This document shows positions 32,574-64,000 of a stretch of 64,000 nt of DNA, in pieces (the stretch's first letter is position 1; each line of letters opens with the position of its first letter). Both the position numbers and the translations under genes were made by a program. This stretch comes from Tetracentron sinense (Eukaryota; Streptophyta; Magnoliopsida; Trochodendrales; Trochodendraceae), in NCBI GenBank assembly GCA_015143295.1, contig CM026559.1, positions 20,102,826 through 20,166,825 of the forward strand. The letters are read 5' to 3'. The notes under the pieces were generated by a model. It was given only the letters and a program-made list of their open reading frames with translations. It ran no database searches and was not told the origin of the DNA.

Positions 32574-35256
32574 TAGGGACATCAATGAGCCGAGCTAGCT
32601 CGTGAGCCAGCTCGACTCGGCTCGAAATGAGCCGAGCTTGAACACAATGACAGAGTTCATGGAACCAAGCCGAGCAAGTAGGGTGAGCTCGTTTAATATA
32701 CGTGCCGAGCTCAAGCAAAGGGTAACTCGGCTCGGCTCGATTATTTATATTATAGCATTAGACATATATACCCTTAATATTATTAATGATTTACATTCGA
32801 AACTAGAAGAGGCTTTATAAAGTAAGACCTAAAAATGTAATTTTCTAAGTCATGATAAAATCGAAAACCTAAAAGCCGGGATAGAACAATACTTTCTAGT
32901 GTTCCATCTACATCTATCCTTTCAATCTCCTCTCTCTCTCTCTCCCTCTCTCTCCACCCTCCTTTTGGTCTTCCTTTTCACCCTCCCCACTCACTCGAAA
33001 TCTCCTTTCGGTATTTCTGCTACAGGTAAGAAAGGATTGTGAAATGAAGCAACTTCCAATGGTGGTTGTCCAGATTGCAATTTCCATGGCTCTAGCTCCT
33101 ACACCTACTAGCAAAGGTAAGTTTTCCATTTCTTCTTCCTTTTCTTTTTGTAGAACCTGGGATCTTGTTTTCATAGCCGGTGAATAGTGTTGGGAATAGT
33201 GTCTATGAATAGTGTTTTTAAGACCTAATGGTCTTCTATGTGATTTGGTGTGGTTAAATGATATGAGGGAGTTCTATGTTTTGTGTGTGTGTTATGCGTG
33301 TGCTAAGGCCAAGGTGAAAAGAGTGAAAACACTCTAAGGGTGAAGGAACAAGAGTGGAAACACTCTAAGTGGAAAAACAAGGGAAAATGGTCAAGTTCTG
33401 CAGGTGGCCGGTCGACCACCCCTATTCCCAATCGACCAACTGTATGATTTGTGGCCCAAAAACAGGACCACAGTAGTTTTTTTTTATGAAGGCCGGTCGA
33501 CTGCCCCTTCAAGCCAGTCGACCGACTATGGATTTCTAGGCTACTTTTGGCCTAGCCGACCAACTATTGCTTTATGGGATATTTTTGGAGGGCTTTTTGG
33601 GGTTTCGACAAACCCCAAATTCTATATAAACCCCCATTTCGTGGGCTAAAAGTTACCAAACCCTAAGAGCAAAATTGAAAGAGAAAATTGAGAGAGAGAA
33701 TAGAGAAAAGATAGAGAAGAAGAGGGATATTGGGAATTGTTTTGGGGTTGTTCTTGAGTTAATTTCTCAACAAAGAAGGAGTCCTCCTTGCTTCTCAATC
33801 TTTCCTAAGCAAATTAGCTCAAGGGATTGATCTAGGAAAGGTAGATACACTCTACTATCTACCCTTGTTGTTAAGAAAATCACGAATTTTCTATGTTCTT
33901 GATGGATTGAAATGATGAATTTTGGGGTATTTGTAAGCTATCACTATACTTGAATTTCTATGACTATGATTCCATGTTTCTATGTTTTCTAAGTCTATCA
34001 TGATGTTCATAAGCACTATATGCACTCTATGTCTCGCATGATTCGAAGTTCTCTCATAAGTACGGTTATCTAAAATTCATAAGAAACTCATAACCCATAA
34101 ATCTCGAGCTTAAAAGCATTGATAAAGTCAAACTCAGGGTTGGTCAAGGATTGGGCATATCCAAGGATATGTCATATCCGGCTTAAAGTAATCTCATAAG
34201 AAATTGGATAAAACCAATGGGAAGGTTGGTCAAGTATCTTGGCAGCTCACTTTTATGTATTCGATTAAGAGTATTTATATACTCGGCTCTAAGTCTTTTC
34301 ACAGGTGCTAAGGTCTGGCTCAAAGTTAGGTTCACAAGGATCTCATAAGTTCAAAAGCTCATAAGTCTCATAAGAACCTTGATTCTCGTAAGAACTCATA
34401 AGACTCTTAAGTTTTGATTTCTCGTAAGGAATTATATGCTTTGATTTCAAAGTATGCTCATAAAGTAGTTTTGGAAAACTATACATATGGTTTTTAAGAA
34501 TTTCTATGTCTCTATCTCTTTGCATGTGAAATGAAATAATTACATTGTTAGCTAGTAGCTTGTATACGCTGAGTCTTTCATGCTTAGCCGAATTGTTGAC
34601 TTCGGCAAGTTCTGTGGATGCACATGCTCCTGAGCCTTGGATAGAGGAGGAGTACTACGAGCCAAACCCTGCCATGGATCATCACCATGATGATGAAGCT
34701 CTAGATAGGTGGCCCTAACTAGACTATTGTTGAGAGTGGTGAGGGAGAGATGTGTATTTTGATAGTGGGTATGTCCACTCTACATTTATATGTTTAAATC
34801 TGTGGGTTCGTACTTGGAATACAAATCACTTATTTAGAAATTTTGCTTCTGCTATGTATGTTGCTTTCGAAATGTATATGCCATGTGTATTCTCACAGGA
34901 TGGCATGGTTTGGTTTGATATGATAATTCACGAGCTAAAGTATCCCCAACTCCTAGGGGGTATTTTGGGTTGCAACACTTTTCCCTTAGATTTGTTCTTT
35001 ACTCTTTTTTTTTCAGTATTGCAATACTCTTTTTTTAGTATTACAACCCTAAATATCAATGGATATCTCAAAAAAAAAAAAAAGTAGTGCTTATCGAGGC
35101 GAGCTCGAGCTCAATGGATTATGGACGAGCCGAGCTCGAGCTCGAGCTCGAGCTGACCTTTCTGACCTCGAGTCGAGCCTGAGCAAATGTAAAATTCTAA
35201 CGAGCCGAGACCAAGCAGTGCCCAGGTCAGCTTAACTCAGTTCGTTGACACCTCTA
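32574..35256. mobile_element. Non-autonomous hAT-type element with internal insertion
   Basis: Ends TAGGGACATCAATGAGC and GTTGACACCTCTA form imperfect terminal inverted repeats. The flanks CCAGTCAC (32566-32573) and CCGGTCAC (35257-35264) are an 8-bp target-site duplication with one change, as expected for hAT. Both subterminal regions are rich in GAGCCGAGCTCG words. No transposase is present. The interior (about 32885-35083) is unrelated: a CT-rich, exon-like stretch, an LTR-like segment and a 14-A run. Confidence 0.65.
33180..35083 (+). repeat. LTR-like segment ending in poly(A), inside the hAT element
   Basis: Shares landmarks with the long LTRs at 35265, 59873 and 62055: a cluster of GGTCGAC-type palindromes (33407-33570), a TCTATATAAAC box at 33621-33631, the GGATATGTCATATCC stretch near 34165, the GCTAGTAGCTTGT block near 34550 and CCCAACTCCTAGG near 34947. 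It ends in 14 A residues at 35070-35083, which an ordinary LTR would not have, so it may be a retroposed transcript. The start is uncertain. Confidence 0.4.
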
Positions 35257-35264
35257 CCGGTCAC

Positions 35265-36985
35265 AGCCGTTCTCATTCCTATTGTAAAATTCTAAATAGA
35301 AGAGTTTTTGGGGGTTTTGGGTTTAGACTAAACCTAAGGGAGATTTTGGAAAGAGAAGGGAGAAGAGTAGAGTTCGGAAGAGGGGTTTTGGTTGGAGATC
35401 AAATGGAGCTCAAAGCTTGGCTCCCAAGGCTTGGATCTTCTTCTTCAAGCAATGATCTTCATTCTCAATGGTGGATCTTCTCCATCAAGCTTGGGTTTCT
35501 CACTCAAGGGTTCCATCAAGCTAGGATTGAAATCTTCAAAGAGGTTAGTACACCCTTCTAGTTAGTTTAGTAATAACCTAAATCTCAAAACCTAGTTTTA
35601 ATAGTACGTATGTTGGATTGGGCATGAGTATTTCCTAATTTCTTGAATCAACCATGATACCTAAAATTTATGGATTTATGAACATGAAATGGATGTATTG
35701 GGTTAAGGAACTATGAATGTTGGAATGTATGTATGGAAATTAGGCCTATGACTATGAATGAATGCTTTAAGGTTTTTCCCCAAATTGGTAAATTGCTAAC
35801 ATGCTCTATATGTTCTAATTAAAATCTCACATGTCTATAGAAAGGTTTGAAATGCTATATGATGTTCTTTTAAGTGTTTTCCTGCCAATATGATGTTCAC
35901 AATTCACTATGTACAAGCATACATGCATGAACCGAATTTTCTAGTATAAGTATATGAAAAACAACCAAGAACAAGACAAGTGATTTACGAAACGAATGAT
36001 AAATCCGAACTTTTGGTCGGTCAAGGATAGGGTATATCCAAGGATATGCCACATCCAGCTTCAAGATAACAAGACAAGTAAGCATGATAATGCCGGATAT
36101 TGAGCCGGTCAAGGATGTTAGTGTGCCTCTTCTATTCAATGAGGGGTGTTTATACAGCCGGCTTTCAAGTTGTTTCATGTTCAATTTCGATGAAGGGTAT
36201 TCACATACCCGGCTTCAAGTAGTCTAAGGGCACTAATATCTAGCTTCAAAGAAACAAGACAAGTCCAGCATGACAAGGCAAGTAAGACAAGACCACATGA
36301 TTCAAACACAACAAGATAAGACAAGCATGATTCTCACGAGACAAGAACCAAACAAGAATGAGATTGTAAGCACAATAAGCAAGTTTTGAAAACACAAAAA
36401 AATATTTTCAAGAACAAGTTATGAATTATGTGCACGGATTTATACGGAGATTTCGTAGTTAGTCTCATGCATTTCATGGTCATTATGTTGTTTACTTTGA
36501 TAATATGAATTGATTTATGTTATTATTATTGTTAGCTAGTAGCTTGTGCTCATTGAGTATTCAATACTCAGCCGTACATATTAATGTCGGCAGGTGCACA
36601 GTTCGACATATGTGCTCCGGGTCCTTGGATCGAGGAGGACTATAGTGAGGAGGAGCCTCATATAGAGACTATATTAGGTCCTCAGGTGGAGACCAAAGAC
36701 TTAGACAGTTGGCCCTATCAGGGTGACTATTGAGAGAGAGAGAGAGAGTTTTGTATTTTGATATTTTGATAGGTGGGCATGTTCACCTTTACTATGTTAT
36801 AAGATGTATCGAACTTGGAATATTATTAATGTATAGAAAAGAAAATTTTGTCCATGCTTCTGCACTCTATCTTAAGTTTCCATTATATATATGCCTCGTA
36901 GATTTTGCAGGATGGTTTGTCAGGTTATGTTAGTCACCATTTAAAGTCTCACCTAACTCCTAGGAGGATTTTGGGGCGCGATAGC
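35265..36985 (+). repeat. Long LTR remnant, probably Ty3/gypsy (partial)
   Basis: Carries the same later landmarks as the LTR-like segment at 33180: the GAGGTTAGTACACCC block at 35541, GGATATGCCACATCC near 36040, GCTAGTAGCTTGTGC near 36535, TGTCGGCAGGTGCACAG near 36585 and CCTAACTCCTAGG near 36953. Upstream LTR sequence with the palindromes is missing, so the copy is 5'-truncated. No gag or pol. Tekay/Del-like origin is an inference from the LTR layout. Confidence 0.4.
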
Positions 36986-37480
36986 ATATCTATTAGATCA
37001 CATAACCATCTGACTCAGCCACAGTACGGATGGCATATCTATCAAAGAAATCACAACCTTCTGACTCAGCCTTGATACGGCATATCTCTCAGATAACATA
37101 ACTCAACCATCTGACCCAGTCACAGTACAAACGACATATCTACCAGAGGTATCACAACCCTCTGACTCAGCCTCAGTACGGTATATCTATAAGATAACAT
37201 AACACAACCATCTGACTCAGCCACGGTACGGATGACATATCTATCAGAGGTATCACAACCCTCTGACTCAACCTCGGTACCGCATATCTATCAGATAACA
37301 TAACCCAGTCATCTGACTCAACCACAGTACAGACGGCATATCTATTAGAGGTATCACAACCCTCTGACTCAGCCTCGGTATAGCTTCTATCAGATAACAT
37401 AACCCCCTGACTCAACCACGGTGGGGACCTCATCCTCACAGCATATCTATCAGGTGACACAACTATCGTCTCCCCTGACC
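36984..37480 (-). repeat. Tandem repeat, about 100-bp unit, five copies
   Basis: Units start near 37001, 37098, 37199, 37299 and 37398. Each is built from two related halves sharing CATATCTATCAGA and CTCTGACTCAGCC words. It lies in the 3' part of the reverse LTR, as the array at 61395-61775 lies in another LTR. Confidence 0.75.
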
Positions 37481-39305
37481 TAGTCAAAGAGAATCTATGG
37501 ATAACCTTCCACCCACTCTCGACTATCAGTCACAGAGGTACCCCGACTCTTAATAGATACTGTCTCTCCAGACCTAGTCAAAGAGGACCTCAGATAGCAT
37601 TTAACCCAGGTTACCCCAAATAGTATTTAACCCATGTTAGGTTTTCTAACCATAGGAAATTCCCAATTAACTCAAGTCTCGCTTAATTAATTGAATACGT
37701 TGGGTCTCGCGCCCGTGGATCACTTTCGAAAGTATACTGCTTTACCAGGCTGATGGATCCGTCCATCGCCTACAACATCCAAACATCACATTATATAGGG
37801 TCGTTCCTATAGGGAACATATCCAGGCCGATGAGTCCATCCATTGCCCTACAAACATTCAAATTATCATTTTTTCACCCAAGGTGACACCATAACACACA
37901 AGGAATTCAAAACCGGGCTTCTTGGAGGATCCGAGCATCATCAGGGAAAACAAAACCCCAATTTCTCTGCACTGGCAATCGATTGCCCGACCCATTCGAG
38001 CTGAAATTTCAGGCTTTACCAGCCCGAAACCGAGGCTACATCCCTCTTCTCGATTTTCCATCCCTTTCCCTTCATTTCATACATCATCCACATGGTCTCT
38101 GACCCTTTTCATCCATGCATCACACATTAACACAATTCCAAAATAATAATCGCATAAGGATCCCAAAAAATTTGACCACTTTCTATATTTTGTTATTTTA
38201 ACATAAGTTAGGATCAAAATCTGGAAAAATGTTTAACATGAACATTGAAGAGGGTTTCCAGATCTTTCCAACGTCTTAAGAATCAGTCGATTCCGAGTTC
38301 TGACCGCAAAATTACAGTCATTTAAAGTTAACTATTCATAACAGGGAAAATAGAAAAGAGGGAAAGGGTTTTTACCTCTATACACGAATATCGAGACGTC
38401 TAGGGATGAAATGAGTGCCGCCAATGCGTCGGGAGCACCGAATAATGCCAAGGGGGACCTTCTTCCGCTTTCTCTCTCTTCTTTCTCTCTCCTCTTTCTC
38501 TCTCTCTCTACTTTCTCTCTCTAGATCTCACTCGAGTAGAGCTTCACCTCTGATCTGTGCGTGAGAAAATGAGGGGGCCTTGCCCTCTTTATATAGGCAA
38601 GAGGATGGGCACATGACCTTAGTGATGTGACCTCTTTGATCGAGTCAACGGGTTGATCGTTTGACAATTTCTCCGTATTTTCTCGCATATACGGCCCCTG
38701 AAACCCTACAAGACGACATGCAACAATTACTAAATTTCAGGTGACCAAACTAAGGGTAGTCTGACACCTACTGTAAAAATTTCGAAGAAAAATACTGAGT
38801 TTTGACAGTAAAAAACAAGTCTGGAATAAAACTACAAAACCTGCTAATTTCCTGGTTTTAGACACAAAACACGTTGTCGTTTCTTCATTTGAGATGATTA
38901 ACTACCGAAATGACAGACGATCGGTCCTCACGATCGACTGGCACAATATGGTACCAGTTGCATGGATTTCTATTAGAATCCTTACAAAATATCGAGTCTC
39001 AATAGAACTTCAGAAATCTGTAAATTTCCTATTTAATTTCTTGATTTTCTTATGTACAAGGTCCTCGCGAAACGATACGCGACAGAATCGGCACGACTGG
39101 TGATCATCCCGATAACCGCCCAATACACTGTGTGCAATTTTCAACAATTTTTAATTAGCTAACGGTATAACTCGGTCCCACAAGAAAACCTGATTTTGCA
39201 ATTTTATCAACCGTTGAACCATCACACATCAATTCTAACCAAATTAAATCTAATTAAGGACTAATAAACCCCAATTTTATTATATTAAAATTTTGGGTCG
39301 TTACA
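36986..39305 (-). repeat. Long LTR remnant in reverse orientation, probably Ty3/gypsy
   Basis: The minus strand starts TGTAACGACCCAAAATTTT at 39305, a common start for long plant gypsy LTRs. A CTATATAAAGAGG box lies at about 38589-38600, a CT-rich leader follows, and the far end is a tandem array (36984-37480). CGATCG-core palindromes lie upstream of the TATA box at 38915-38940. The 3' end is not sharply defined and no target-site duplication is seen. Confidence 0.45.
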
Positions 39306-42122: not shown

Positions 42123-43742
42123 TATTTATAAAACTACATGGTTTCTAAGTATTTCAGTAACTACGATTAACTTCATGTCATTTCAGTAAACTTTGATCGA
42201 AATGTCATTTCCCCCTATACAAAAAAATACTAAATGTTGGTCCAAATATTTTCAAGTTCCAACCAAAGTTTATATTCAAGGAACATTTATTTTAACAAAA
42301 TGTTTCATAAAGTGCAAAGTTTAGTGGTAATTTGGATATGATATGAGCTTTTAACCAGTTATAGTATTTTAAAAAAATCATATATCTATACTACCACTTA
42401 TATAATAATAAATTGATAATCATGTATTATCATTTTTAATTAAAAATAAAACAAATCAAAGAGCAATAGATTAATCAATGCATGTGTTTTTTAATGTATA
42501 AAGATTAAATTAAAATTTTAAAGTGACATTCCATTTAATATATTTTTTTAAAATTCCATATGAATATAATTATTGTGTATATGATGTCACTTACCTGTAG
42601 AGTAAATATTAGAAAGTACTTTAATGACTTTTAATTCGAAAACTTATATTTTAACTAAGAAATTAAAATTAGAAAACTAAAAAGTGGAGAAAAATAAGCC
42701 CAAATCGTGGAGTGTAAGCGGAAACAAGAGCGCCCAATTTAGAAATAACCTACGGTCCGGAGTGCCTCTAAAGTGTCAATCTTTATATATAACGATGATG
42801 TATTGTCCTTCTATATATTAATTCATAGAAACATAATTATATAATAACAATTTTCATTTAGCTATACTAATGAACTTTTTATTTTGCACAAGAAGCCTCC
42901 CTTTTCCTTTTTAGTTGAGTAATGATTCTTTATTAAATATACATAACTTCATGTTTTCTATTCAACCTATTTGACCCATACTTATCAAAGTTGGACTAAA
43001 ATTATGATTTACATATTCTCGCAAATAAAAGTCTTTTCTTTTTTCTATCTCATCAAATCTACATATTAATGGTCTCAAATATTACTAGATAGGATTATTT
43101 ATATATATATATATATATAAAACAAAGTTAAGTGGATAAATCTCCACTTTGCAGCTTGAAAAAGAGTTGTTATTAATCTGATCACCGTCGGAGCCAAAGT
43201 TTCTTAGAGAAAACCAAGGCAAAGCTCCTAGAAGCAACTAAAAGATTTAAAGAAAGAACTTGATTCAAGAAAAATCTAATAAGAATTCTATTGTTGTTGA
43301 TACATCTCATTTTACGTGCCTCTTTCTCTTCCCAAATAAAAAGGTAAAATTAAATGAGAAAATGATAGAATTAGATCTCATTAAAGGGAGATCTACACCT
43401 TTTGGGCTCATTCGAGAGAGTCCAACACCTCCCAAATCTCTCTTTCGAAAGAAACTCATATTCATTCATTTGTTGATTTTTCAAAATACAGGATTACAAC
43501 TTTTAAATAGACACAAAAGTAAGTTATAAAACTACCCACTACAATAAACCACTCCTAACAACTACCAATTTACACACCCACTAAACCCACTAAATAAGCA
43601 CATAACTTCTCATGACCTCATTTATCAATAAATTATAGGATCCATATATATATATATATAACGAAGTGCAGAAAATGCAAGTACAAGAAAGAAAGTAGTA
43701 GAAGGGGTCATAGGAACATGAACCCAACTACGAAAAAGAGAA
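42123..43742. other. No recognisable gene
   Basis: Strongly AT-rich, with TA microsatellites near 43094-43118 and 43646-43660. A 90-codon frame at 43260-43529 has no recognisable domain and is probably chance. Confidence 0.55.
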
Positions 43743-43747
43743 CAAAG

Positions 43748-45249
43748 TGTGGGCCAGGTAATAACCCTAAAGGGGGGGTGAATAGGATCTATGGCAGCTT
43801 TTTAAAAAATTGAACTACAAATTCAAAAGTGCGGAATAAAATTAAATATGCAACAAGCTGAACTGTAGAATATTTAAAGGAAAGAGAGAAGAGATAAGGA
43901 GAATGCAAACTCAAGATTTGTTTACGAGGTTCAGTAATTCAGCCTACTCTCCGCCTCAGCTTCCAGCTAGAGGATTCACCACGATTCCTTAATCGCACTG
44001 GCTCCTTTACTGGTGGAGTCCAAACCTTTACAATCTCTCTTACAAGTCGAGATATTACCTTACAAGCTCTCCTTTAGGCCGAGCTGAAACCTCTCAAGAG
44101 ACAACCCTCTCTTGAAATAACTGAAGCAATAGCTTCAGTGCAAGAATCCTAGATTCTTGACTACTTTCAATAAATGAGTTTTTGGATTAAAAATCCGAAG
44201 AGAAAGCTCCTTAAATGAGCTAAATAAAAGTGAAATACAAACTCTAATTAAGTCTTTCAAAGTAGGTAGGAGTCAAGTAAGCTCAAGAGAGAATTTTTGG
44301 AGATTTTCTACGTATGAGAGTAAGTGAAAATCAATAGCAGTGAATAGGTGATAGATGGGAATTATTGCTGTGATCAAGAATTGTTATATGTTCATAAATG
44401 AACTCCTTTTATACCATTTGATCCAATAGTGCCGTTGGGGTAGCATTAAATGCTTTTAGGTCCATTGCAAACTAGTTGTTGCAAAGATTTTTCAGTTTCA
44501 GACATGATTTCGTCGACGAAGTGGAGTTCCCACTTGAGTTCGTCGCCGAATTCAAAAGATGGAATTTAATTTTAAAAATTCCTGTAATAACTTCATCGCC
44601 GAAGTTAACCCAACCAAAGCTTTCGTCGCCGAAATCAAGAAATAGAACTAAATTTGAAAATTTTTGTAATGACTTCGTCGCCGAATTCAATCTACCCAGA
44701 GAATTCGTCGACGAATTCAAAGTAAAAATTTTGAATTCAGTCTTGGATCATACTGAAGGGATGAGATTGATTTCCTAGGTCAATTAGCTATACTCTTATC
44801 AAAATTTTATGATTAATTAGAGCTTTGGAGTGATCTTCAAAAATGTCCTAGGCTCCTATGGTCAATCTATGATTCTTGAGCTTTTCAACTTACCATCCTT
44901 TTGAGGACATTTTACATAAGTCCTATACATTCTCAGAATAAAAAGTAAATACATTTAAAAATGATGAGAGATGATCTTGGCTTGACTTGGATCTTGTGAT
45001 TTTGCCTTTTGTCTTCAATGGACCTGACTTGGACTAAGGTCTTATCTTGGATCTTCATCTTGTATTCAGTGAGTTGAACTTCCTCTTTGGAAATTTCCAT
45101 CCTTTTTCATGATTGGAATGCTATCAACTTATGTAATCTGAAATGTTCACGCACTTAAATGGTTTTATTAGTACCAAATATTTCATTATATTATTATGTT
45201 ATTATCAAAATTAATAGGGGTACTTATGGTTGTAACCCTGAGGCTAACA
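43748..45249 (-). repeat. 3' LTR of the Sirevirus
   Basis: A 1502-bp LTR. On the minus strand it starts TGTTAGCCTC; the outer end is TGTGGGCC on the plus strand. Six copies of TTCRTCGMCGAA lie at 44508-44715, about 100-300 bp upstream of a TATAAAAGGAG box (about 44402-44414). Confidence 0.95.
44508..44715. promoter_or_regulatory. Array of six TTCGTCGMCGAA palindromes in the LTR U3
   Basis: Motifs at 44509, 44539, 44592, 44622, 44673 and 44704; two are perfect palindromes (TTCGTCGACGAA), the others differ by one or two bases. The array is repeated in the other LTR (about 53977-54185). Placement before the TATA box suggests transcription-factor sites, by inference. Confidence 0.6.
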
Positions 45250-45298
45250 ATCTCCTCATTTTTGATGATGACATAACAATATAATAAAATGGGGTTAA

Positions 45299-45670: not shown

Positions 45671-45689
45671 TGTCAACATTAAAAAAAAA

Positions 45690-47800
45690 TTACAGCTCAT
45701 CTGTTTTCTGCTTTTTGATGAGGTCTGCAACCTTTGAGAGGACATCTTCTGATGGCTCAGCTGGATCGGAGTGATCATGGGAGTCTGAGGAAGAGGAGGT
45801 GGAATCTGATTCTGAAGGAAGGGAGATGATAGGGGAATCAGTAGCTTGACCTCTTTTGGAGGGGGTTACCTTTATTGGTCTCTTGCCTTTGGAAGAAGAG
45901 GGGGCTTGAGAGGGAGGCTGAGAAGGAGTGACTCCACTAGCCAGACTCACCAGAAAATTATTCATTTTCTTCAACTCATCAGTGGCCCGCAAGGTAATTG
46001 AGGCAGCTATGGAGTCATGCTCTGCCATATCCAAAAGAAACTTGCCTTGAGTCTTCAACTGAAGAGTTGACGATTCTACAATTCCTTGGATTGTCTTTGT
46101 GACCTTCTCCATTCGGATACTTTCTTCGGATTGTTCTGCCCTCAATTGATGTAGAAATGAAGATATAGAGTCAACTCTATCTTTGGTGACTGAGGCATCC
46201 ATGTTAACTGTCCCTAAGACAAAGTATGTGGCATTGGCACACTCTCTAAGATCATTATGCACCAGGGCAAGAGAAGACTGGACTGCTTTGGGGATTTTGC
46301 TCATCTCAGACTCAAGAGCTGCAAAACGGGATAGAGTAGAGGAATGGATTCTGAAGAGTTTCCCTTAATTCGATTTGAATGGCAGTTAGATTTTCCCTTG
46401 TTGCTGCCATGAAGGAGAGCAGGGATGACTTTATCTCCTCTTGAAAAGCCTGCTAACTCATCCTCATTTCCAACTGAAACTGCTCCAAGCTGGAAGACAT
46501 GGAGGCAATCTGCCCTGCTATGATGTTCAGTTGCTCATCTGAAGCTACTGGCCTGTTGGGCACCTCATAGAACTGACCAGGGTCCTCAAAATGAGGAGAC
46601 ACCTGTCTACGAGAACTCTTTGGAATCTCTCCAGCATCCACGAAATCAGACCAGTCAGGCAGCTCATTTCTGGTGTGCTGCTCACCCTGAAGCTCATCTG
46701 CAGGATCCTCTTCTGCTACTGACTACTGCTCAGCCTGGGGTTCCTCCTCTGGCACTAAATCTTGCTGCTGCTCAGCCTGAAGTTCTGCTGTGGGTGCAGA
46801 TGAAGAGGAATGAATAAATGAAGAGGGAGCAGAAAAAGGTATAGATGGAGTATGAATAGGAACTGGAGTACTGGAAGGAAGGGAGGAGGACTGAGAAGTA
46901 GAGAGTTTGGGAGTCCAAACCTTCTGGGAGTCATTCCAGATATAGCCCATTCTTTGAATGGTTGCTTTGCTATAAATGGAGGAATCATCAGGGGTTACAA
47001 TATCTATTTGAGAGGCTAAAGAAACATTGAAGTGTTTAAAGATTTTAGTCAGAGCCTGACCAAAAGGGAGACACCCTGATTTTCTCTTAAATACATCATC
47101 CATACAATGGACAATGATGTAGGAGAGATCAATGGGTGTGGAGGTAAGGATGCACCACATAAGGAATACATCGAAGTAGGTGAGATACTTCCTACCACCA
47201 GCCCTGAGAACTAGGTTATAAGTGATTATGTAGTGAATCAGTCTAGCAGTGAGGGTAAGATCTTTAACCTTAGGTTGAAAATGAGAAGTGAAATCTTGGT
47301 TTATGCACATCATTTTCAGTGCTTCAACCACATCAAATCCTTCATGACTGGTCCACTGACCATTCACAAAGGTTTGAAGGGTACACTGAGGGATCTTTAG
47401 AATTGAGTGCAATTGATTTAAATGAAGAGAGATATTTTTACCTAAGACAAATGAGGTAATAAGAGATTCAGATTGATTGAAATGGAAGTGAGTGTAAAAG
47501 AGTTTGACTAACTCAGGAAACATGGGTTCATTTGATTCAAGAAATTTATCCCATTTTAGGGCAGAAAATAGAGTTTTTATGGGTTCGAGCCCATAGGCAT
47601 CAAAACTAATAAAATTAACGACTTTACCGTACAGAGGGGAACGAGATAGGAATTTTTCTTTGAATAATTTCCCGAACTTTGCTTCCTTGAACTTTACTGG
47701 GACTGGAGTTGAACTTGAGGCCGGTTCTTTTCCTTTGTCGGTTCGTGATTTCTTCTTTGGTGGCTCCACAGATGCATTCTTCATTCTACGAGGCATATTC
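45690..47800 (-). pseudogene. Extra gene region of the Sirevirus (putative plant transposon protein domain, envelope position)
   Basis: Lies between RNase H and the 3' LTR, in the sense direction. The upstream part begins MPRRMKNASVEPPKKKSR, a basic nuclear-localisation-like start, followed by a folded region with LVKLFYTHFHFN, GKNISLHLNQL and LTARLIHYIITYNLVLRAGG, resembling the plant-specific transposon protein domain seen with such elements. A Ser/Pro/Gln-rich linker and a helical, coiled-coil-like part with an acidic tail follow. This is where Sireviruses carry their so-called envelope-like gene, but no signal peptide or membrane segment is apparent. Broken. Confidence 0.65.
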
Positions 47801-48329
47801 TGAAAGATTTAGAAAGATTTGCTAGAGCTTGGAACAAAGAAGGGTGCACGAACAATGGAATAGGGACTTTGGAGGGAAGGATTAGGTTTGAAAAAGTTCG
47901 GATTTTGGGGGTTACTATTTATACACACAACTCAATTCGTCGCCGAAATGGGTTTCGTCCCTGAATTCGTCGCCAAAATTGAGTTAGGAGCCCTAATGTG
48001 TTTAATTTCGGATTGACTTCGTCGATGAAATGGATGACTCATCCAGGTTCATCGCTGAAATGGATAACTCATCTAGGTTTGTCGCCAAAATGGGTACAAA
48101 AAACATTCTGTTTTCTATATTTCTCAAAGATTCGTCGCCGAAATCATATTCTAGATTGAATTCATCGTCGAATTCAGTCCTGAATATGAAGAATTGTTCT
48201 ACCTATTTTCCTTTAAGTTAAAGATTCATCAAGACATCTAAAATAATCATAATGTATTCAAATCAATCTATTTATCAATCAAGTAAGTTATAGGCATATC
48301 AAAATCAAAGATTTCAATTTTTGATTGCT

Positions 48330-49950: not shown

Positions 49951-49959
49951 TAGGGTGAT

Positions 49960-51949: not shown

Positions 51950-53150
51950 TTTCTTTTTGTAGATTTTCACATGAATGTGAAAGAGTGTGAATTTCCTTTT
52001 AAAAGAATTTATTTAATTTAGCTATTCTACCAAATTCAAAGTAGAGTTCATCAAATGCTTCTCTTATTTCATTATATGAGAGAGAATTATTTGGGGAAGA
52101 AGTTACCTCATCCTCATTTGCCATGAGACACAAATTTGTCACTTCTTCATCACTTGAATCTTCCGACTTGCTTCCCTCCGAGTCATCCCAAGTTACCATC
52201 ATAGCCTTTTTCTTGTGCTTTTGGCTCTTCTTGAGTTGAGGGTAGTCAGTCCTTATGTGGCCTGGCTTCTTGCATTCATAACACGTGAGAGGTTCCTTCT
52301 TGTTAGCTTCAGCTTTGTTCACTTCTTTTGAGAACTCCTTATTGTATGGTCTCTTTTTGAAGTTCTTCTTATGATTGAGGAACCTTTTGAACCTTCTTGC
52401 CATCAAGGCTATATCTTCATCATCACTGCTGGTTTCCTCATCACTAATTTCAACTTGAGTAGACTTGAGAGCCAGCCCTTTCTTGGTTCTAGGTTCATCA
52501 GGCATTTGATCCTTCATTATGACTTCATGAGTCATAAGAGATCCCAGCAGCTCATCCATAGGCAGTTTGGTGAGGTCCTTAGCTTCTTGGATTGCTGTTA
52601 CTTTTGGAGTCCATTCCTTGGGCAGTGATCTTAAAATCTTTCTTACATTTTCTGCATTAGAATACACTTTACCCAGAGATTTAAGACCATTTAAAATGTT
52701 AGTAAATCTGGTGAACATATCACTGATAGATTCTTCTTTTTCCATTTTGAATAATTCATACTTGTGAACAAGCATGCTAATCTTTTCTTCTTTAACCTGA
52801 TTAGTTTCTTCATAGGCGACTTTCAGTTTATCTCATATTTCTTTAGCAGAGTTACATCCAGAAACTCTGTTAAATTCTTGGGGACTTAAGGCACAGTAGA
52901 GGTTGCTAATAGCTTTAGCATTGATTTGAATGAGCTTAATGTCAGCTTCATTCCATTCTTCCTCTACCTTAGGAATTCTGACACCATCCACTGTTTTTGT
53001 GGGGAGATGGGAGCTATTGACTATTACTCTCCAACACTCATAATCTAGAGCTTGAATCTAATACATCATCCTAGTTTTCCAATAGTTATAATTTTTTCCA
53101 TTAAACAGAGGTGGACTGTCCTTCTCCTAGGCTTGTTGCAAGAACATTGT
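51950..53150 (-). pseudogene. Gag region of the Sirevirus
   Basis: Contains a copia-type Gag segment (LVHKYELFKMEKEESI, DMFTRFTNILNGLKSLG), a CCHC knuckle CYECKKPGHIRTDYP in which the last cysteine is not seen, and the acidic C-terminal extension with NLCLMA typical of Sireviruses. Packages element RNA. Confidence 0.85.
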
Positions 53151-53199
53151 TTGTCATAATAAACTCGATTACTCAAATTGTTTAGATCTATTTAGAGTA

Positions 53200-53215
53200 T
53201 TAGGCTCTGATACCA
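53200..53215 (-). other. Primer-binding site (initiator tRNA-Met)
   Basis: The minus strand reads TGGTATCAGAGCCTAA two bases inside the 5' LTR; TGGTATCAGAGC is the standard complement of plant initiator tRNA-Met. Confidence 0.9.
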
Positions 53216-53217
53216 AT

Positions 53218-54717
53218 TGTTGGTCAGGTAATGACCCTAAAGGGGGGTGAATAGGGTCTATGATAACTTTTTAAAAAATTGAACTACAAATTCAAAAGTG
53301 CGAAATAAAATTAAATATGCAACAAGTTGAATTGTAGAATATTTAAAGGAAAGAGAGAAGAGATAAGGAGAATGCAAACTCAAGATTTGCTTACGAGGTT
53401 CAGCAATCCAGCCTACTCCCAGCCTCAGCTTCCAGCTAGAGGATTCACCACGATTCCTTAATCGCATTGACTCCTTTACAGGTGGAATCCAAACCTTTAC
53501 AATCTCTCTTACAAGTCGAGATATTACCTTACAAGCTCTCCTTTAGGCCGAGCTGAAACCTCTCAAGAGACAACCCTCTCTTGAAATAACTGAAGCAATA
53601 GCTTCAGTGCAAGAATCCTAGATTCTTGACTACTTTCAATAAATGAGTTTTTGGATTAAAAATCCGAAAAGAAAGCTCCTTAAATGAGCTGAATAAGAGT
53701 GAAATACAAACTCTAATTAAGTCTCTCAAAGTAGGTAGGAGTCAAGTAAGCTCAAGAGAGAATTTTTGGAGATTTTCTATGTATGAGAGTAAGTGAAAAT
53801 CAATAGCAGTGAATAGGTGATAGATGGGAGTTATTGCTGTGATCAAGAGTTGTTATATGTTCATAAATGAACTCCTTTTATACCATTTGATCTCATAGTG
53901 CCGTTGGGGTAGCATTAAATGCTTTTAGGTCCGTTGCAAACTAGCCGTTGCAAAGATTTTCAGTTTCAGACATGATTTCGTCGACGAAGTGGAGTTCCCA
54001 CTTGAGTTCGTCGCCGAATTCAAAAGATGGAATTTAATTTTAAAAATTCCTGTAATAACTTCATCGCCGAAGTTAACCCAACCAAAGATTTCGTCGCTGA
54101 AATCAAGAAATAGAACTGAATTTGAAAATTTCTGTAATGACTTCGTCACCGAATTCAATCTACCCAGAGAATTCGTCGACGAATTCAAAGTAAAAATTCT
54201 GAATTCAGTCTTGGATCATACTGAAGGGATGAGATTGATTTCCTAGGTCAATTAGCTATACTCTTATCAAAATTTTATGATTAATTAGAGCTTTAGAGTG
54301 ATCTTCAAAAATGTCTCAGGCTCCTATGGTCAATCTATGATTCTTGAGCTTTTCAACTTACCATCCTTTTGAGAACATTTTACATAAGTCCTATACATTC
54401 TCAGAATAAAAAGTAAATACATTTAAAAATGATGAGAGATGATCTTGGCTTGACTTGGATCTTGTGATTTTCCCTTTTGTCTTCAATGGACCTGACTTGG
54501 ACTAAGGTCTTATCTTGGATCTTCATTTTGTATTCAGTGAGTTGAACTTCCTCTTTGGTAATTTCCATCCTTTTTCATGATTGGAGTGCTATCAACTTAT
54601 GTAATCTGAAATGTTCACGCACTTAAATGGTTTTATTAGTACCAAATATTTCATTATATTATTATGTTATTATCAAAATTAATAGGGGTACTTATGGTTG
54701 TAACCCTGAGGCTAACA
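53218..54717 (-). repeat. 5' LTR of the Sirevirus
   Basis: A 1500-bp LTR, about 97% identical to 43748-45249, with the same palindrome array and TATA box. It is followed on the plus strand by the target repeat CAAAG. Confidence 0.95.
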
Positions 54718-58073: not shown

Positions 58074-58415
58074 GGAAATTTTTCGTCTCTAATATGATTT
58101 TTCCATGTCTAATAATATTAGACACGGAAATAATAATCGTCTCTATATCGTGAGTGATGCTCTCATCATTGATGCTAATAGAGACGAAAAGAATTATCCG
58201 TTTCTAATATGGAATTAGACACGAAAATTTTTCTGTGTCTAATATCTGTTGGCAACGGAAATATTTCAGTGTCTAATATCTGTTGGACACAGAAATATTT
58301 TCATGTCTAATATATGTTCGCAACAGAAATATTTTTGTGTCTAATATCTGTTGGACATGGAAATATTTCCGTGTCTAATATATGTTGGCAACGGAAATAT
58401 TTTTGTGCCTCTTTC
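58074..58415. repeat. CACTA subterminal repeats
   Basis: Repeated units, mostly about 40 bp, of the form ACGGAAATATTTNNGTGTCTAATATNTGTTGG, in both orientations near the left end. Such arrays bind the accessory transposition protein in En/Spm elements. Confidence 0.75.
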
Positions 58416-58969
58416 AGTAACTCAAGTAACATTGTGAATGTTTTGTCGTTTCATCCATTGAGACACTTAATGTTATTTAATTAGACGATAAAAGACAGTT
58501 TACTAAAATTTTTACATTCGGGATACAAATCTTGTTCGGCATCTTCCATTAGCTTATAGAATTTTGTGGCTTCTGCGTTGGAACTCTCTCTTGTTTCACT
58601 TTGTCCCTCATCAGCTGTCACTTCGTTTGCACGATTGGGCCCAAATGTCACGTGCAACATCTCGTGCATATCATCAATTACAGAGTTATTCACGTCTCGC
58701 ACCACTTGGGCAGTTGAAGATCTAGGATGCGGTCTTTTCCCGTGGAAAATCAACGTAGCCGTGTCATAATGCTTATCGAATCCATCGCAAATCAAATGCC
58801 TGTACTCACTGTGTCGTATCCAATAATATCGATTACTACATTTTTTACACGGACACTTGATAGTACTGTCAAGTTGTGGTGACTTACTAAATACAAAATT
58901 TAAAAAATTGTTCATAGCCGTTTTATATATATCACTCCATCTGTTTGCAGAAACCCAACTTTTATCCAT
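58416..58969 (-). pseudogene. Transposase fragment, TNP2 N-terminal (Transpos_assoc) region
   Basis: The frame from MDKSWVSANRWSDIY contains the transposase-associated domain: IKCPCKKCSN with its cysteines, then HLICDGFDKHY and FHGKRP. It continues with FYKLMEDAEQDLYPECKNFS and KLSFIV, the usual start of TNP2. In-frame stops follow at 58481-58483 and near 58458, between recognisable LNNIKCLNG and NDKTFTMLLELLKEA, after which the gene runs into subterminal repeats. The catalytic region is absent. ATG at 58969 is preferred over an upstream in-frame one because the family starts MDKSW or MDRSW. Confidence 0.75.
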
Positions 58970-59046
58970 GGTGACTTTATCAGCTCTCGCAATCACTAAC
59001 AACATAAGACAATATATATATGTCATTAGTGAATGCTACTAGTTCT

Positions 59047-59872
59047 TGTTAGTCTCAAGGTTATAACTCTAAGTACCCTTAATAGTTTCGATGATAACAC
59101 AATAATATAATGGTCTTAATGATACTAATATCTCCATTTAGTATGTGAAAATTCAGAGAAAAATGATATTAAGATCATCATTCAAGTTATAAGGAATTGA
59201 AGAGCTCAACCAATCTAGGACATCAAGGTCAAAGTACAAGTGCTAGTCACTTCAAGGGAAAAAGCTTCAAGGACTCAAGCCAATTCATGATGTCTAGTCA
59301 CAACTGAAGCTCCACAAGTTCCATGTCAAGATTATCTCCATATGAAATCTAGTGTGAATGCCTAGGACCTTGTAAAATCCTCAAGACTTTTGGAAATGTT
59401 TGCTCAAAGTTTACGTAGATAGACCCGAAGGGACTTAGTATAATTTGGACATCATTCTAAGGGCCTTAAAATGATTAAAATAATGTTGGTATGATGGCCT
59501 AGGGGTCTAAGTACAATACATATCCATTTGGTCTCATTACAGATGAGTTCACAGAAATCAGTGGACTCGTCGACAAGTAGAAGAGACTCGTCAACGAGTG
59601 GGAAAACACTAAGCTCATTTTGAGTACTGTCACCCCACTCATCGACGACCCCATATTTTCTACACTCACTCGTCGATGAGTGTATGCGGGAAAAGTGTAT
59701 AACGGCTAGTTCGCATTAAATGTGCTCCCAACGGCCATATTGATTGTTCAACTATAAATAGAGCTTATTTATGAACTAAATACATGAATCTAACAATGTT
59801 CAATCATTCATACATTCCTTACAATCTTCCAGCAATCAATACTCTGTTTTTACATTGAATACCTAGAATACA
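59047..59872 (+). repeat. Sirevirus-like LTR, 5' part, inserted in the CACTA fragment
   Basis: Starts TGTTAGTCTCAAGGTTATAA and follows the start of the Sirevirus LTR above (TGTTAGCCTCAGGGTTACAA on its minus strand), including the CTAAGTACCC and ATAATATAATG blocks. It has four ACTCGTCGACGAGT-type palindromes at 59565-59682 and a CTATAAATAG box at 59752-59761. It is interrupted at 59872 by another LTR. Broken remnant of a related but different element. Confidence 0.7.
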
Positions 59873-60119
59873 TGTAGCACCCTGGAACTTTTCGTACCTA
59901 ATGAATAACGTTCCCATAACCGATTGGCCTTTCACGTAGTCTAATTAATAAATAAAGAAGAATTGAAAATTTCTAAAATATTAGAAATGTTCCCCTTCGA
60001 AAGACGAATCCAACGCAAGTTGAATCATCAAAGTCTGACGAACGAGTCAAAAGTTATGGCTGAAATACCGAAGTGGGGAAAAATGAGAAAAAACAGAAAA
60101 ATTGGCAAAAACACAAGGA

Positions 60120-60254
60120 TCCGGTCGACCGAATTTGCTACCGGTCGACTGAACAGCCACTGGTCGACCGAATGCCTTTACCGGCCGACCGGTCAAGAAA
60201 AATTTTGTATGGGTTATTTTTCCAGAGAGGTCATTTTTGACCGGTCGACCGGTC
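60120..60254. promoter_or_regulatory. Cluster of ACCGGTCGACCGGT-type palindromes
   Basis: Five CCGGTCGACC-like motifs in 135 bp, among them GACCGGTCGACCGGTC at 60239-60254, a perfect 16-bp palindrome. They lie about 75-210 bp upstream of the TATA box at 60329. Confidence 0.6.
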
Positions 60255-61394
60255 ATGCGAATTTTTGCCCAGTTCGATCTGTTTTGCCGAAATTTTAAGG
60301 GTAAAATGGTCTTTGACCACCCTATTTTCTATATAAACCCAATTTTGTGGGTTTGGGGTTTCATAAACCCTCAAGCCAAGTTTTGAGAAAGGGATTGGAG
60401 AGGAAGAAGGGAGAAGTTAGGGTTTTGCTCAAGGGGTGTCGGATTTGAGGTCAAGGGAGCTCAAGCTTGAAGATTCTCAAGCAAGGATCATCCCCATCAA
60501 ACAAGGGTTCCTTAAAATCTCAAGTGGTGTTCTTCCTCAAAGTTTAGAGCATTCTCTACAAGTGAGATCACCCTCTATCAAGTTTGGGGTTTTCTAAATT
60601 AAGGGGTTTTCTCCAAGATCAAGCATTGATCTTCAGGTTAGTACACCCTACTAGCTATTTTAGTGATAACCTAGGTTTATTTTACAAAGCATGCTTGTAG
60701 ATTTCTTTAACTCATTCTTTTCTTGATTTTTTGCTTTATTAAATCTTCAAGTTAAACAAGATAAAAAAGAAATTGTGGATATGTGAATGTGTGGTTGAGG
60801 CGATGGGATGCCGTATGGATGTGATGGGTGTTATGTGATGGAAAACGTTGGATGGGCATTGTACACATAATAAATGCACATCATGTGTTTGACGAAACAT
60901 ATGAACTTAAATAACTTGAAATAATGTGGCTATGAATGTGTTGTACATTTGGTGTTTGACAAAATGCATGAATGAGAATGCCAAGAATAAAATGAGGGAA
61001 TTGGGAAGTATGATTTGTGTAGCTTTCCTTAAAAGATGATTTTAAAACAAACACTCTATATGTTTTCATTTAATTCACAATGTCTATGCAATTATAAGAA
61101 ATGTCACATTATGCTCTATTGTTTCATGTTAACATGATTATTAGAAAGAATTGAAATGCAATATGTGTTCCTGGATTCATCTTTGATAGTATGATCTTCA
61201 CAAATGCCACACACACCAAGCACGCATACATGAATTAAACTCACCAAACTTTTTAAGTATGAGCATATGAAAAGAAAAACCAAGAACAAGAAATGTAAAT
61301 TGTGAAATAAGCATGAATGTCAAGGATAGGGCATATCCCTAGGATATGTCATACCTGGCTCACAAGAAAACATGACAAGCAAGAATTAAGAAAC

Positions 61395-61775
61395 ATGGAA
61401 GGATGCTAGTATACTAAGACCAGGTACGGGCACTAACATCTGTTCCCTAACAAGTATGAGAGGATGCTGGTATACTAAAACCAGGTATGAGTACTAGCAT
61501 CTATCTCTAAGTAAAATGATGAGCATGAAATGATACTAGTGTACTAAGACCAGGTACGGGCATTAGTATTTGTTTCCAAGACATGAATAATATGAAAGTA
61601 TGCTAGTGTACTAAGACCAGGTACGGGCATTAACATCTGTTTCCAACAAGTTTGAGAGGATACTAGTATACTAAGACCAGGTAAAAGTACTAGTATCTGT
61701 CTCCAAGCAAGAATAAAGAAATATAAAATGGTGATAATGTACTAAGACCAGGTACGGGCATTATCATCTGTTCTC
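61395..61775 (+). repeat. Tandem repeat, about 60-bp unit, six to seven copies
   Basis: Each unit has the word ACTAAGACCAGGTACGGGC with variants, followed by a TAACATCTG-type word and a variable spacer. It lies in the 3' half of an LTR, like the array at 36984-37480. Confidence 0.8.
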
Positions 61776-62054
61776 ATGCAAGCAAGAAACTCACAAGCAA
61801 GTAAACTAGAAAACATGCAAGACTCTCACAAGACGAGAATAATCTCATAAGATAGGTAAGGTAACCACAAGATGCATGAGATGTATAAGGAGCTCACGAT
61901 GTAACGGAAACCACATCAGGTAAAAGCATGAATTCAAAGCATGATTAAATATAAGATGTTTCAAGATTTATTTTGTTATTTCATTCTGGCTTCTGCACTC
62001 TGATTATATACATGTGATAATTAACTGTATTATGCATGTTATGTTATTGTTATT

Positions 62055-64000
62055 TGTAGAGACCCGAATCTTTTCATGTCTTTATTACAAGTATTAGGGG
62101 TATTATAGTCCTTGTGATATTTTAATGTTTATGTATTTATATCTAATTGGTATAGTGTGATTAAGGCTTAATCAAACTTGTAAGCGAAGAGATGTCATAT
62201 CACACCCTGAACTTTAGGAAGCTCTAGTTTTGGCACCGTTTATTGGAATTGAATGATTCTTGAACCATTAGAAAGGTATTGGAACCCTCTTCGAGGTTCA
62301 TATTTAATATTTTTCCATATTTTTAGTCTAAGCTAAGTCAAAAGTGGGTTTTCTGATGTTTTGTCTGATGGAATTACAGATCAGTCAACTTTGGGGATAA
62401 TTTGGTCCATAAATGAAATAGAATTTAGAAATTCTAATACCAAAAATGTTCCTTTTCGAAAGACGAATCAAATGTAAGTTGAATCGTCGAAATCCGACCA
62501 ACGAGTCAAAAGTTATGGCCAAAACAGGAAAATGGGTCAAAAATCTGCAGAGCACCGATCGCTAGGGATCGATCGGTACAAATCCGATCGCTCGGTCAAA
62601 AGTAGCGATCGATCGGTACACAACCGATCGATCGGTAGCTATCGACTGGTTAACTTTTTTGTATGAAAATTTTTCCAGAGAATGTGTTTTTGACCGAGAG
62701 CTCAGTCAAGAATACCGGTCGATCGGTAGGCGACCGATCGCTCGATCATAACCACCGATCGCTCGGTCTTTCGTATTTTTTTTACAGGATTTCAGTAAGG
62801 TCTTTTAGGTCTTTTGGCTCTCAAACCTTGAGGCTATAAATATGGGGTCCTATTTCGAGGTATTAGAGTACTCTACCTATTTCTAACCTAATTTAGCAAA
62901 AATGGAGAGAAAACCTAGGGTTTTGAGAGAGAGATTGCTTGGAGAAGAAGGAGATAGCTTGGATATCGTTAGGAAAACTTGGAGATCGTCCTCAAAGCTT
63001 CCCCAAATCATCTTGGGAGCGATTTGGATCCAAGGGAAGGATCCCTAAGGTCGATATATTATCCTAATCAACCCTATTATAATGTTTTATGAATGTTAAT
63101 ATGATAGAAATGATAGAAATAGGAATTAAATGTGTTTTTCCTTATTTTTGTATGAAGTAAGCTATCATGGATGAAAATATGGATTAATAATGTGGATGAG
63201 ATGCATGGAGGATGAGAAATACCATGGAGGATGGGATTAATATGTGGATGTGGATTGTAATTAGGTTGTGTGGATGGATTATGGTTTGACGAAATGTTTG
63301 AAATGTGGAAAGGGAAATGGGTTCATGATCTACGTACCCAAGGTGTTTGTGAAAATGCTTGAGAGGATAAATACTAATATATTACTATAGAATTGTAAGA
63401 AATTGATTATAAATTGTGCTAAGAATCATGATAAGATATGTATACGTGATTATTTGTTAAGTATGTCTAATTACTTGCATGGAAATTGATAGTCGGGAAG
63501 GTAAGAACTTAGAGGAAAATCTCTCAAACCGGGAATTCTCTAACTATTTGGTATGGGACAATATAGTCGAGTTTCCATGGTGGGAGATTGGAATCTAAGC
63601 AATTACCAACTCGAATGTTAATTTCGACACTGAATCACAGATGCACGTGTATGTTAAGATAAGAGTCTCACAAATCACACATGTGGACCACAAGCATAAG
63701 CATGGCATGCGTATGACATTCTGAATAAGCATGAGCATGGCATGGTCCGTATCCGCCAAGAACGGCATGTCCATTTTATAATTTCTTAGGCATGGTCCGT
63801 ATCCGCCAAGAACGGCATGTCACATCACTATATGATCTGAATAAGTGCATAAGCATAAGCATAAGCATCTCACAAGCACGTGGTCTCATAAGCATAAGCA
63901 TCTCATAAGTATATCATCTTCTAAGTCCAAAGTTCTCACATGTACACGAGTCAAGATGATGATATGATATAATGAGCACTTGTTCTTCCGTACTCTGATT
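62055..64000 (+). repeat. Long LTR of the same superfamily, runs off the right edge
   Basis: Starts TGTAGAGACCCGAATC inside the previous LTR. It shares the CCTTTTCGAAAGACGAATC and AACGAGTCAAAAGTTATGGC blocks with it. CGATCG-core palindromes lie at 62553-62767 and a CTATAAATATGG box at 62834-62845. Near 63737-63822 a 32-bp word starting GCATGGTCCGTATCCGCC is present twice. The 3' end and any internal region lie outside the window. Confidence 0.5.
62553..62767. promoter_or_regulatory. Cluster of CGATCG-core palindromes
   Basis: About nine CGATCG-containing motifs, including CCGATCGATCGG, in 215 bp ending about 65 bp upstream of the TATA box at 62834. Confidence 0.6.

What the first reader, a model, noticed from the sequence alone, without database searches (positions are those of the whole stretch)
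33407..62767. CG-centred palindrome clusters upstream of the TATA box in six LTRs from at least two retrotransposon families
Seen in sequence: the Sirevirus LTRs carry six TTCGTCGMCGAA motifs (44508-44715, repeated at 53977-54185). A related LTR at 59047 carries four ACTCGTCGACGAGT-type motifs. Long gypsy-like LTRs carry CCGGTCGACCGG-type motifs (33407-33570, 60120-60254) or CGATCG-core motifs (62553-62767, 38915-38940). In most the cluster sits about 60-300 bp before a TATA box, slightly further in the reverse LTR. GTCGAC or CGATCG cores recur although the rest of the LTRs is unrelated. Within an element copies vary outside the core, as expected for selected binding sites. Inference: convergent recruitment of one host regulator, or a site tied to CG methylation or anti-silencing.
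Basis: partly seen in the sequence, partly recalled or inferred. Interest (0 to 1): 0.75.

Follow-up and report, generated by a model that had tools for sequence, protein, structure and literature searches.

The report
Phased CpG palindrome arrays in LTR promoters
Two very different kinds of plant retrotransposon in one genome carry rows of similar short CG-centred palindromes just before their promoters, spaced about every ten bases, which suggests that both rely on a protein that binds them side by side along one face of the DNA.

Summary
The arrays are real and not confined to the window. Genome-wide, TTCGTCGMCGAA gives 7,183 strand matches against 133 for the reversed pattern, and CCGGTCGACCGG 851 against 25 per strand. 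In 16 arbitrarily placed 10-kb stretches the excess is specific to TCGA-centred palindromes (32 v 7.1). The gypsy-like arrays belong to a Ty3 lineage: one D-type copy holds gag, protease, RT, integrase and a weak chromodomain match. In 30 of 30 fetched loci the array follows a shared block; 24 have TATAWA within 250 bp, median 72 bp. At this homologous place at least five box types occur, one of them the copia box; four of the five differ by single symmetric pairs. Box spacings cluster near multiples of 10 bp. Best reading: helically phased sites for a dimeric, probably host-encoded, DNA-binding protein. The factor is unidentified.

The parts
53212..54717 (-). 5' LTR of copia (Sirevirus-like) element A
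   Evidence: 96.8% identical to 43742-45249 over 1508 bp; copia-type domains between them
43742..45249 (-). 3' LTR of element A
44509..44715 (-). array of 6 TTCGKCGACGAA-type boxes in the 3' LTR, spacings 30/52/30/53/30
44408..44413 (-). TATA box of LTR A, 95 bp after the last box
   Evidence: position
53977..54183 (-). array of 6 boxes in the 5' LTR
   Evidence: 0.58 sites expected
47916..47923 (-). TATAAATA, 12 bp after the last internal box and 127 bp before the ATG
46723..47796 (-). ORF at the env-like position (ATG at 47796-47794, stop included), Pfam Transposase_32
59047..59872 (+). LTR B, related to LTR A at its start, cut off by LTR C
   Evidence: 77% identity to the start of LTR A; 94, null max 29
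59566..59680 (+). array of 4 CTCGTCGACGAG-type boxes, spacings 21/51/31
59753..59758 (+). TATA box of LTR B, 72 bp after the last box
59874..62056 (+). LTR C, gypsy-like (start TGTAGCACCC; end taken as the start of D)
   Evidence: boundaries by eye; homology to D
59948..60083 (+). conserved block next to the array of LTR C (78% identical to 62409-62542)
   Evidence: its 20-mer has 3385 exact copies genome-wide
60121..60252 (+). array of 5 CCGGTCGACCGG-type boxes, spacings 20/19/21/60
60330..60335 (+). TATA box of LTR C, 77 bp after the last box
62057..64000 (+). LTR D, gypsy-like, runs off the window (start by eye)
62555..62766 (+). array of 8-10 CCGATCGMTCGG-type boxes
62835..62840 (+). TATA box of LTR D, 68 bp after the last box
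33408..33563 (+). array of 4-5 degenerate CCGGTCGACCGG-type boxes in LTR E
   Evidence: fifth site (centre 33557) by eye
33623..33628 (+). TATA box of LTR E, 58 bp after the last site
38913..38941 (-). two weak CGATCG sites in LTR G, about 320 bp before a TATA box
   Evidence: 3 and 4 mismatches, weakest member

Best explanation
Each array is a multi-copy upstream promoter element: helically phased binding sites for a dimeric, probably host-encoded DNA-binding protein that reads inverted CGA half-sites around a central TCGA and drives, or gates, transcription from the TATA box 60-95 bp downstream in the LTR. In Sirevirus-like element A a second array 12 bp before a TATA box probably drives the env-position ORF separately. 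Shown: position, copy number, TCGA specificity, occurrence in both superfamilies, symmetric type differences, quantised spacing. Inferred: the protein, its dimeric binding, activation and the internal promoter.
For: (1) Position: 154 boxes after the block v 6 upstream and 0 downstream at 30 loci; TATAWA within 250 bp of the last box in 24 of 30, median 72 bp; in the other fetched LTRs with the A-type box 94, 151, 95 and 81 bp in L002, L003, L005, L006. (2) The copia element repeats the design at a second promoter. Among the 100 places listed, three further sets of boxes show the same LTR-internal-LTR layout, with gaps of about 3.2-3.4 and 5.9-6.1 kb. (3) Spacing: 37 spacing modes from 16 arrays concentrate at multiples of about 10 bp (20, 30, 51, 61, 70, 91): R 0.73 at period 10.2, 0 of 4000 uniform draws as high. 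(4) LTR and internal arrays of A share the 30/52 lattice although their spacers are unrelated (16 v null 15.4). (5) In the Ty3 lineage ACGATCGATCGT, GCGATCGATCGC and CCGGTCGACCGG each differ from CCGATCGATCGG by one symmetric pair over these 12 bases, as expected when one dimer reads both halves. (6) Single copies are not compensated: 189 v 188.2 matched pairs in D-type (p 0.43), 164 v 169.6 in T-type (p 0.98), so symmetry belongs to the type, not to each copy. (7) TCGA specificity.
Against: No factor, binding or expression data. The period fits 10.0-10.2 bp; for modes over 40 bp the phase-0 test fails at 10.5 (p 0.24). R is also above the uniform null at 8.0 (0.39, p 0.003) and 11.0 (0.43, p 0.003). 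The values 13, 18, 38, 48-49 and 65 do not fit. Arrays share descent and grow by tandem duplication (LTR A repeats itself at 78%), so the p-values are too small. The compensation test uses mostly dead copies. TATA is not universal: 6 of 30 block loci, all four clusters of the arbitrary stretches and L004 (400 bp) showed no TATAWA within 250 bp, and the distance varies between families (12-151 bp, weak pair about 320).
Confidence: 0.58

Rival explanations
1. The boxes act in RNA: the U3 of the 3' LTR is transcribed, the palindromes pair with one another and feed small-RNA production, as proposed for maize Sireviruses.
For: Arrays fold better than shuffles: z -5.16 (A LTR), -3.50 (A internal), -5.05 (D), -5.25 (C), -3.35 (E). 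PMC10760457 passages report that small RNAs map in excess to palindrome clusters of maize Sireviruses.
Against: Any palindrome array folds well, so z is not discriminating. Within-copy pairing is not above shuffles. Common variants break a pair: G in 4 of 6 boxes of LTR A, C in 73 of 163 D-type boxes. Spacing fits period 10.0-10.2 better than 11.
Confidence: 0.16
2. The boxes are CpG stations for silencing or anti-silencing: dense symmetric CG sites that recruit or block methylation, the exact letters being secondary.
For: CpG observed/expected 1.2-2.1 in six of seven regions v 0.29-0.78 around them; three CpGs per box in the type sequences A, B, C, D, T and G.
Against: TCGA cores are enriched; ACGT only at its null maximum (9, null max 9), GCGC and CCGG not. 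Copies decay by CpG transitions (24 of 86 D-type and 35 of 64 T-type deviations), so they are not protected. CpG changes between the two LTRs of A: 2 of 17 in the array, 4 of 13 outside, too few to tell.
Confidence: 0.14
3. Neutral tandem amplification: short palindromic units spread by slippage and recombination in U3 without a function.
For: Tandem unit structure; CGATCGATCG is microsatellite-like; LTR A repeats itself at 78%; one TTCGTCGACGAA hit lies in a 375-bp tandem repeat (L001).
Against: Same place in 30 of 30 loci, none downstream; copia and Ty3 LTRs without flanking similarity share the 12-mer; the lattice is kept where spacers are not; CCGGTCGACCGG and TTCGTCGACGAA are not microsatellites.
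Confidence: 0.12

Closest known systems
Sirevirus 'repeated motif' (RM) boxes, Bousios et al. 2010, PMC2829016 (abstract, outline, section 9 and search passages read)
   Same: Palindromic boxes, many copies, before TATA in the LTR, CpG-rich, extra copies before ENV. The listed Vitis Sirevirus RM CGGTCGACCG is the core of the C-type box here; Tnd-1 ACAATCGATTGT shares the TCGA centre.
   Different: That paper compared Ty1/copia elements, calls the RM Sirevirus-specific (absent from its 'classic' retrotransposons) and could not conclusively identify an ENV promoter. Here the boxes also sit in a Ty3 lineage, and a TATA box and ATG follow the internal array.
Maize Sirevirus palindromes and small RNAs, Bousios et al. 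2016 (not held; seen only as described in PMC10760457 and PMC5311732 passages)
   Same: Palindrome clusters in the LTR regulatory region; rapid change.
   Different: PMC10760457 passages report that maize Ty3/RLG elements generally lack an obvious structure peak; here a Ty3 lineage has arrays. Box letters differ (maize CACCGGACNNNGTCCGGTG).

Membership tests
Sirevirus RM boxes (PMC2829016), copia element A | dyad-symmetric box repeated at least eight times per element | tested here: met
   6 boxes in the 3' LTR plus 8 internal sites; 4 of 6 LTR boxes have a broken pair
Sirevirus RM boxes (PMC2829016), copia element A | CGG-CCG signature | tested here: not met
   Boxes are TTCGKCGACGAA-type; the paper's Tnd-1 also lacks it
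Sirevirus RM boxes (PMC2829016), copia element A | cluster upstream of the LTR TATA box, CpG-rich | tested here: met
   95 bp before TATA; CpG o/e 2.11 and 1.87 v 0.29; no CpG-island program was run
Sirevirus RM boxes (PMC2829016), copia element A | extra copies upstream of the ENV gene | tested here: met
   array 47936-48172 before the ORF at the env position; whether that ORF is a true ENV is untested
Sirevirus genus, element A | reverse-transcriptase phylogeny, multiple PPTs, conserved junctions | not tested
   only copia-type Pfam domains were found; hence 'Sirevirus-like'
Sirevirus RM boxes, gypsy-like LTRs | restricted to Sireviruses (Ty1/copia) | tested here: not met
   the stretch between L008 and L009 has Ty3 gag, protease, RT, RNase H, integrase
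Ty3/gypsy, D-type element | RT and RNase H before integrase; Ty3 gag | tested here: met
   L037 and L057; RVT_1 also in L040, between L019 and L020
Chromovirus | C-terminal chromodomain on integrase | tested here: inconclusive
   Chromo E 4.1e-5, 23.8 bits, below Pfam's cut-off of 25.1
Ty3/gypsy, C-, E-, T-, G-type LTRs | own Ty3 coding domains | tested here: inconclusive
   LTR homology only; stretches beside T-type L017 (L038) and C-type L036 (L039) held DUF863 and PHD matches, no Ty3 domain

The most novel reading that the evidence does not exclude
Copia and Ty3 retrotransposons of one plant genome share one exchangeable promoter cassette: phased TCGA-centred boxes read by the same dimeric host protein. 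The cassette has crossed the superfamily boundary by convergence or by array transfer.
Probability: 0.3. Interest if true: 0.85.

Novelty: new variant of a known kind. Interest (0 to 1): 0.62.

Why it matters
A motif class described as Sirevirus-specific also sits at a fixed place in the LTRs of a Ty3 lineage whose block 20-mer has 3,385 exact copies in this genome (30 of them examined). That points to one class of reader used by unrelated retrotransposons. The 12-mers are short enough for a direct DNA-binding screen, and the internal array gives a concrete candidate promoter for the open question of how Sireviruses express their ENV-position gene.

Tried and rejected
Rejected: the whole group as unrelated LTRs. 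The GAGCTCGAGCTC cluster at 35101-35167 as a further array: by eye a GAGCTC repeat in another context. The GGCAATCGATTGCC palindrome at 37974 as an array: a single site. The 38915 pair kept only as weak. Relatives elsewhere: the copia RT gave none in viral contigs, the block 20-mer none in viral or prokaryote contigs, 501 bp of LTR D none in plasmids. Pfam on 10 of 25 listed ORFs of 30.0-43.7 kb found no retrotransposon domain. Stretches beside L017 and L036 (L038, L039) held no Ty3 domains in the ORFs given. A 224-aa ORF near the 3' LTR of A matched no family. Literature: six word searches on palindromes in LTRs, one on DAP-seq and LTRs (88), one on chromovirus palindromes (104) and two exact-motif searches gave no paper, by title, listing or passages seen, on such arrays in Ty3 LTRs, 30 of 37 papers were listed and by title only PMC2829016 is relevant. 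I read passages of PMC10760457, PMC5311732, PMC10794571, PMC6911290, PMC11302176 and PMC11963269 and the parts of PMC2829016 named above; the other listed papers I saw as listings. Subscription journals are missing. Planned but did not complete: the genome-wide control CCGGACGTCCGG and the D-type count; T-, G- and B-type counts were not asked. Their genome totals are unknown, and the core control rests on 160 kb plus the window.

Corrections to my notes: note 3 says all four clusters in the 10-kb stretches lie beside the block; three of four do, L056 does not. The TATA part of the script was faulty; replace it: four of four clusters had no TATAWA within 250 bp on either side, and one was found at 351 bp in L050.

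Rows dropped or merged: the spacings were typed in; 12+18 of the internal array was entered as 30, a 10-bp spacing of D was left out, two weak E sites were put in, L004 and L005 were merged, G was left out, and values within 2 bp inside an array were pooled. The 30 block loci come from exact 20-mer matches on the first 34 Mb of one contig and include LTR pairs of the same element, so they are not 30 independent elements. The 16 stretches are arbitrary coordinates of my choice on eight contigs, not drawn by a generator. The six TTCGTCGMCGAA loci are the first six by coordinate.


Full report
What is there. The window (GC 37%) is C9:20102826-20166825 of a 1.16-Gb genome. Its right half holds nested LTRs. 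Element A (43742-54717, minus strand) is a copia element with gag, gag-pre-integrase and RVT_2 domains and an ORF with Transposase_32 at the env-like position. LTR B (59047-59872) is related to A at its start. LTRs C (from 59874), D (from 62057) and E (around 33400) are gypsy-like. With the arrays masked, the LTRs fall into two groups: A-B, and a chain of C, D, E with pieces F and G; in all ten pairs between the groups the alignment scores are at the shuffle level.

Is it more than chance? Boxes within 4 mismatches number 4-10 per array against 0.14-0.58 expected; the weak pair at 38915 has 2 against 0.06. Genome-wide, TTCGTCGMCGAA gives 3669 + 3514 strand matches against 71 + 62 for the reversed pattern, and CCGGTCGACCGG 851 against 25 per strand; the reversed patterns hold at most one CG. 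A stricter control uses 16 arbitrarily placed 10-kb stretches: perfect CG-centred palindromes of 10 bp or more are 44 v 16.2 with 4 clusters v 0, GC-centred ones 30 v 29.6 with none. AT- and TA-centred ones are also about twofold over null (168 v 80.7, 138 v 71.0) and form 8 and 7 clusters, whose sequences I did not inspect. Split by core, TCGA gives 32 v 7.1 (null max 13), ACGT 9 v 4.4 (max 9), GCGC 0 v 2.0 and CCGG 3 v 3.7. So the excess belongs mainly to TCGA, not to CpG palindromes in general.

The Ty3 lineage. A 20-mer from the block just before arrays C and D has 3,385 exact copies, reversed control 0. All 30 fetched loci carry an array directly after it, typed as 23 D (CCGATCGMTCGG), 6 T (ACGATCGATCGT) and 1 C (CCGGTCGACCGG). 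Near-perfect boxes number 154 in that segment (2-7 per locus), 6 upstream, 0 downstream; a TATAWA lies within 250 bp of the last box in 24 of 30, median 72 bp. Between the arrays of L008 and L009 lie Retrotrans_gag, Ty3_capsid, RVP_2, RVT_1, RNase H, integrase zinc domain, integrase core and a chromodomain match just under Pfam's cut-off: a Ty3/gypsy element, probably a chromovirus. L050 (block score 164) has a G-type array, GCGATCGATCGC; L004 and L005 (93, 100; null max 31) carry copia-type boxes, one exact and three degenerate each. So at least five box types occupy one homologous place. L045 has two D-type arrays 7.3 kb apart beside the block. L056 has a G-type array without a detectable block. 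None of the four clusters in the arbitrary stretches has a TATAWA within 250 bp.

Symmetry. Over 12 bases, D, T and G types differ only at the outermost pair, D and C only at the third pair from the centre; types A and B also differ by one symmetric pair. Yet inside arrays single copies are not compensated (190 of 259 v 186.9, p 0.20; 189 v 188.2 and 164 v 169.6). Symmetry is thus a property of the type. A dimer reading two like half-sites explains this; per-copy hairpins or cruciforms explain it less well. The test is limited because most copies are probably dead insertions: 24 of 86 and 35 of 64 deviations are CpG transitions. The same decay suggests that the high CpG content is not due to lack of methylation but is renewed in the transposing lineages (inference).

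Spacing. Adjacent boxes mostly lie about 19-22, 30-31, 47-54, 60-61, 69-72 or 90-92 bp apart. Over 16 representative arrays, 37 modes concentrate at period 10.0-10.2 (R 0.73; 0 of 4000 uniform draws). Restricting to modes over 40 bp leaves V 0.65 at 10.2 (0 of 4000), 0.37 at 10.4 (p 0.04) and 0.16 at 10.5 (p 0.24). R also exceeds the null, less strongly, at 8.0 and 11.0 (p 0.003 each). Misfits are 13, 18, 38, 48-49 and 65. Shared descent and tandem duplication weaken the p-values, but different arrays do use different multiples of about ten. In element A the LTR and internal arrays keep the same 30/52 lattice although the spacers have no detectable similarity (16 v 15.4, p 0.46).

A second promoter. 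The internal array of A (47936-48172, minus) ends 12 bp before TATAAATA, which is 127 bp before the in-frame ATG of the env-position ORF. The 100 places listed contain three more box sets on C1 (near 31.70, 32.78 and 33.76 Mb) with the same three-array layout (my reading of the coordinates; their sequences were not fetched). PMC2829016 describes extra boxes before ENV but says that a promoter could not be conclusively identified; here the candidate is complete in sequence. Transcription from it is untested.

How it most likely works. I commit to phased binding sites for a dimeric, probably host protein, at about 0.58. An element-encoded protein is less likely because two superfamilies share the box. 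Activator or repressor cannot be told; the presence of arrays before promoters of transposed copies favours activation (inference). RNA-level action remains open: arrays fold with z -3.35 to -5.25, as any palindromes would, and maize Sirevirus palindromes attract small RNAs (PMC10760457 passages).

What is known and what is new. The Sirevirus part is known (PMC2829016). There the boxes are called Sirevirus-specific and, Tnd-1 apart, carry a CGG-CCG signature, which A, B, D, T and G boxes here lack and C boxes have. New, as far as the searches show: the same box class, and in L004/L005 the same 12-mer, in a Ty3 lineage; the symmetric type changes at one homologous site; the roughly 10-bp lattice; and the TATA-ATG arrangement after the internal array. 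Whether copia and Ty3 elements acquired the boxes independently or by transfer is open: L003, an E-like LTR, has A-type boxes at spacing 31/51/31, and its best alignment to LTR A (score 33) covers only the array.

Noticed in passing
L001 (C1:5763-8774), 19-2624: The TTCGTCGACGAA box (at most 2 mismatches) recurs mostly every 361-375 bp, in what looks like a tandem satellite near the start of contig C1.
   Followed up: partly
window 3814-3833 and 5221-5240: The same perfect 20-bp palindrome TCCCACTTGATCAAGTGGGA occurs twice, 1407 bp apart.
   Followed up: no
window 36984-37422: Tandem repeats of about 101 bp in the reverse gypsy-like LTR region.
   Followed up: no
window 61376-61788: Six imperfect tandem copies spaced 60-71 bp (AGACCAGGTACGGGCA) inside LTR C.
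   Followed up: no
window 58191-58444: 34-bp tandem repeats beside an ORF with a Transpos_assoc domain (58481-59035), perhaps a CACTA-type transposon end (the CACTA link is recalled).
   Followed up: no
window 25425-30136: LINE-like pieces: DUF4283, Exo_endo_phos, RVT_1, zf-RVT on the minus strand ('LINE-like' is recalled).
   Followed up: no
window 35101-35167: GAGCTC repeat giving long CTCGAG palindromes beside a broken gypsy-like LTR.
   Followed up: partly
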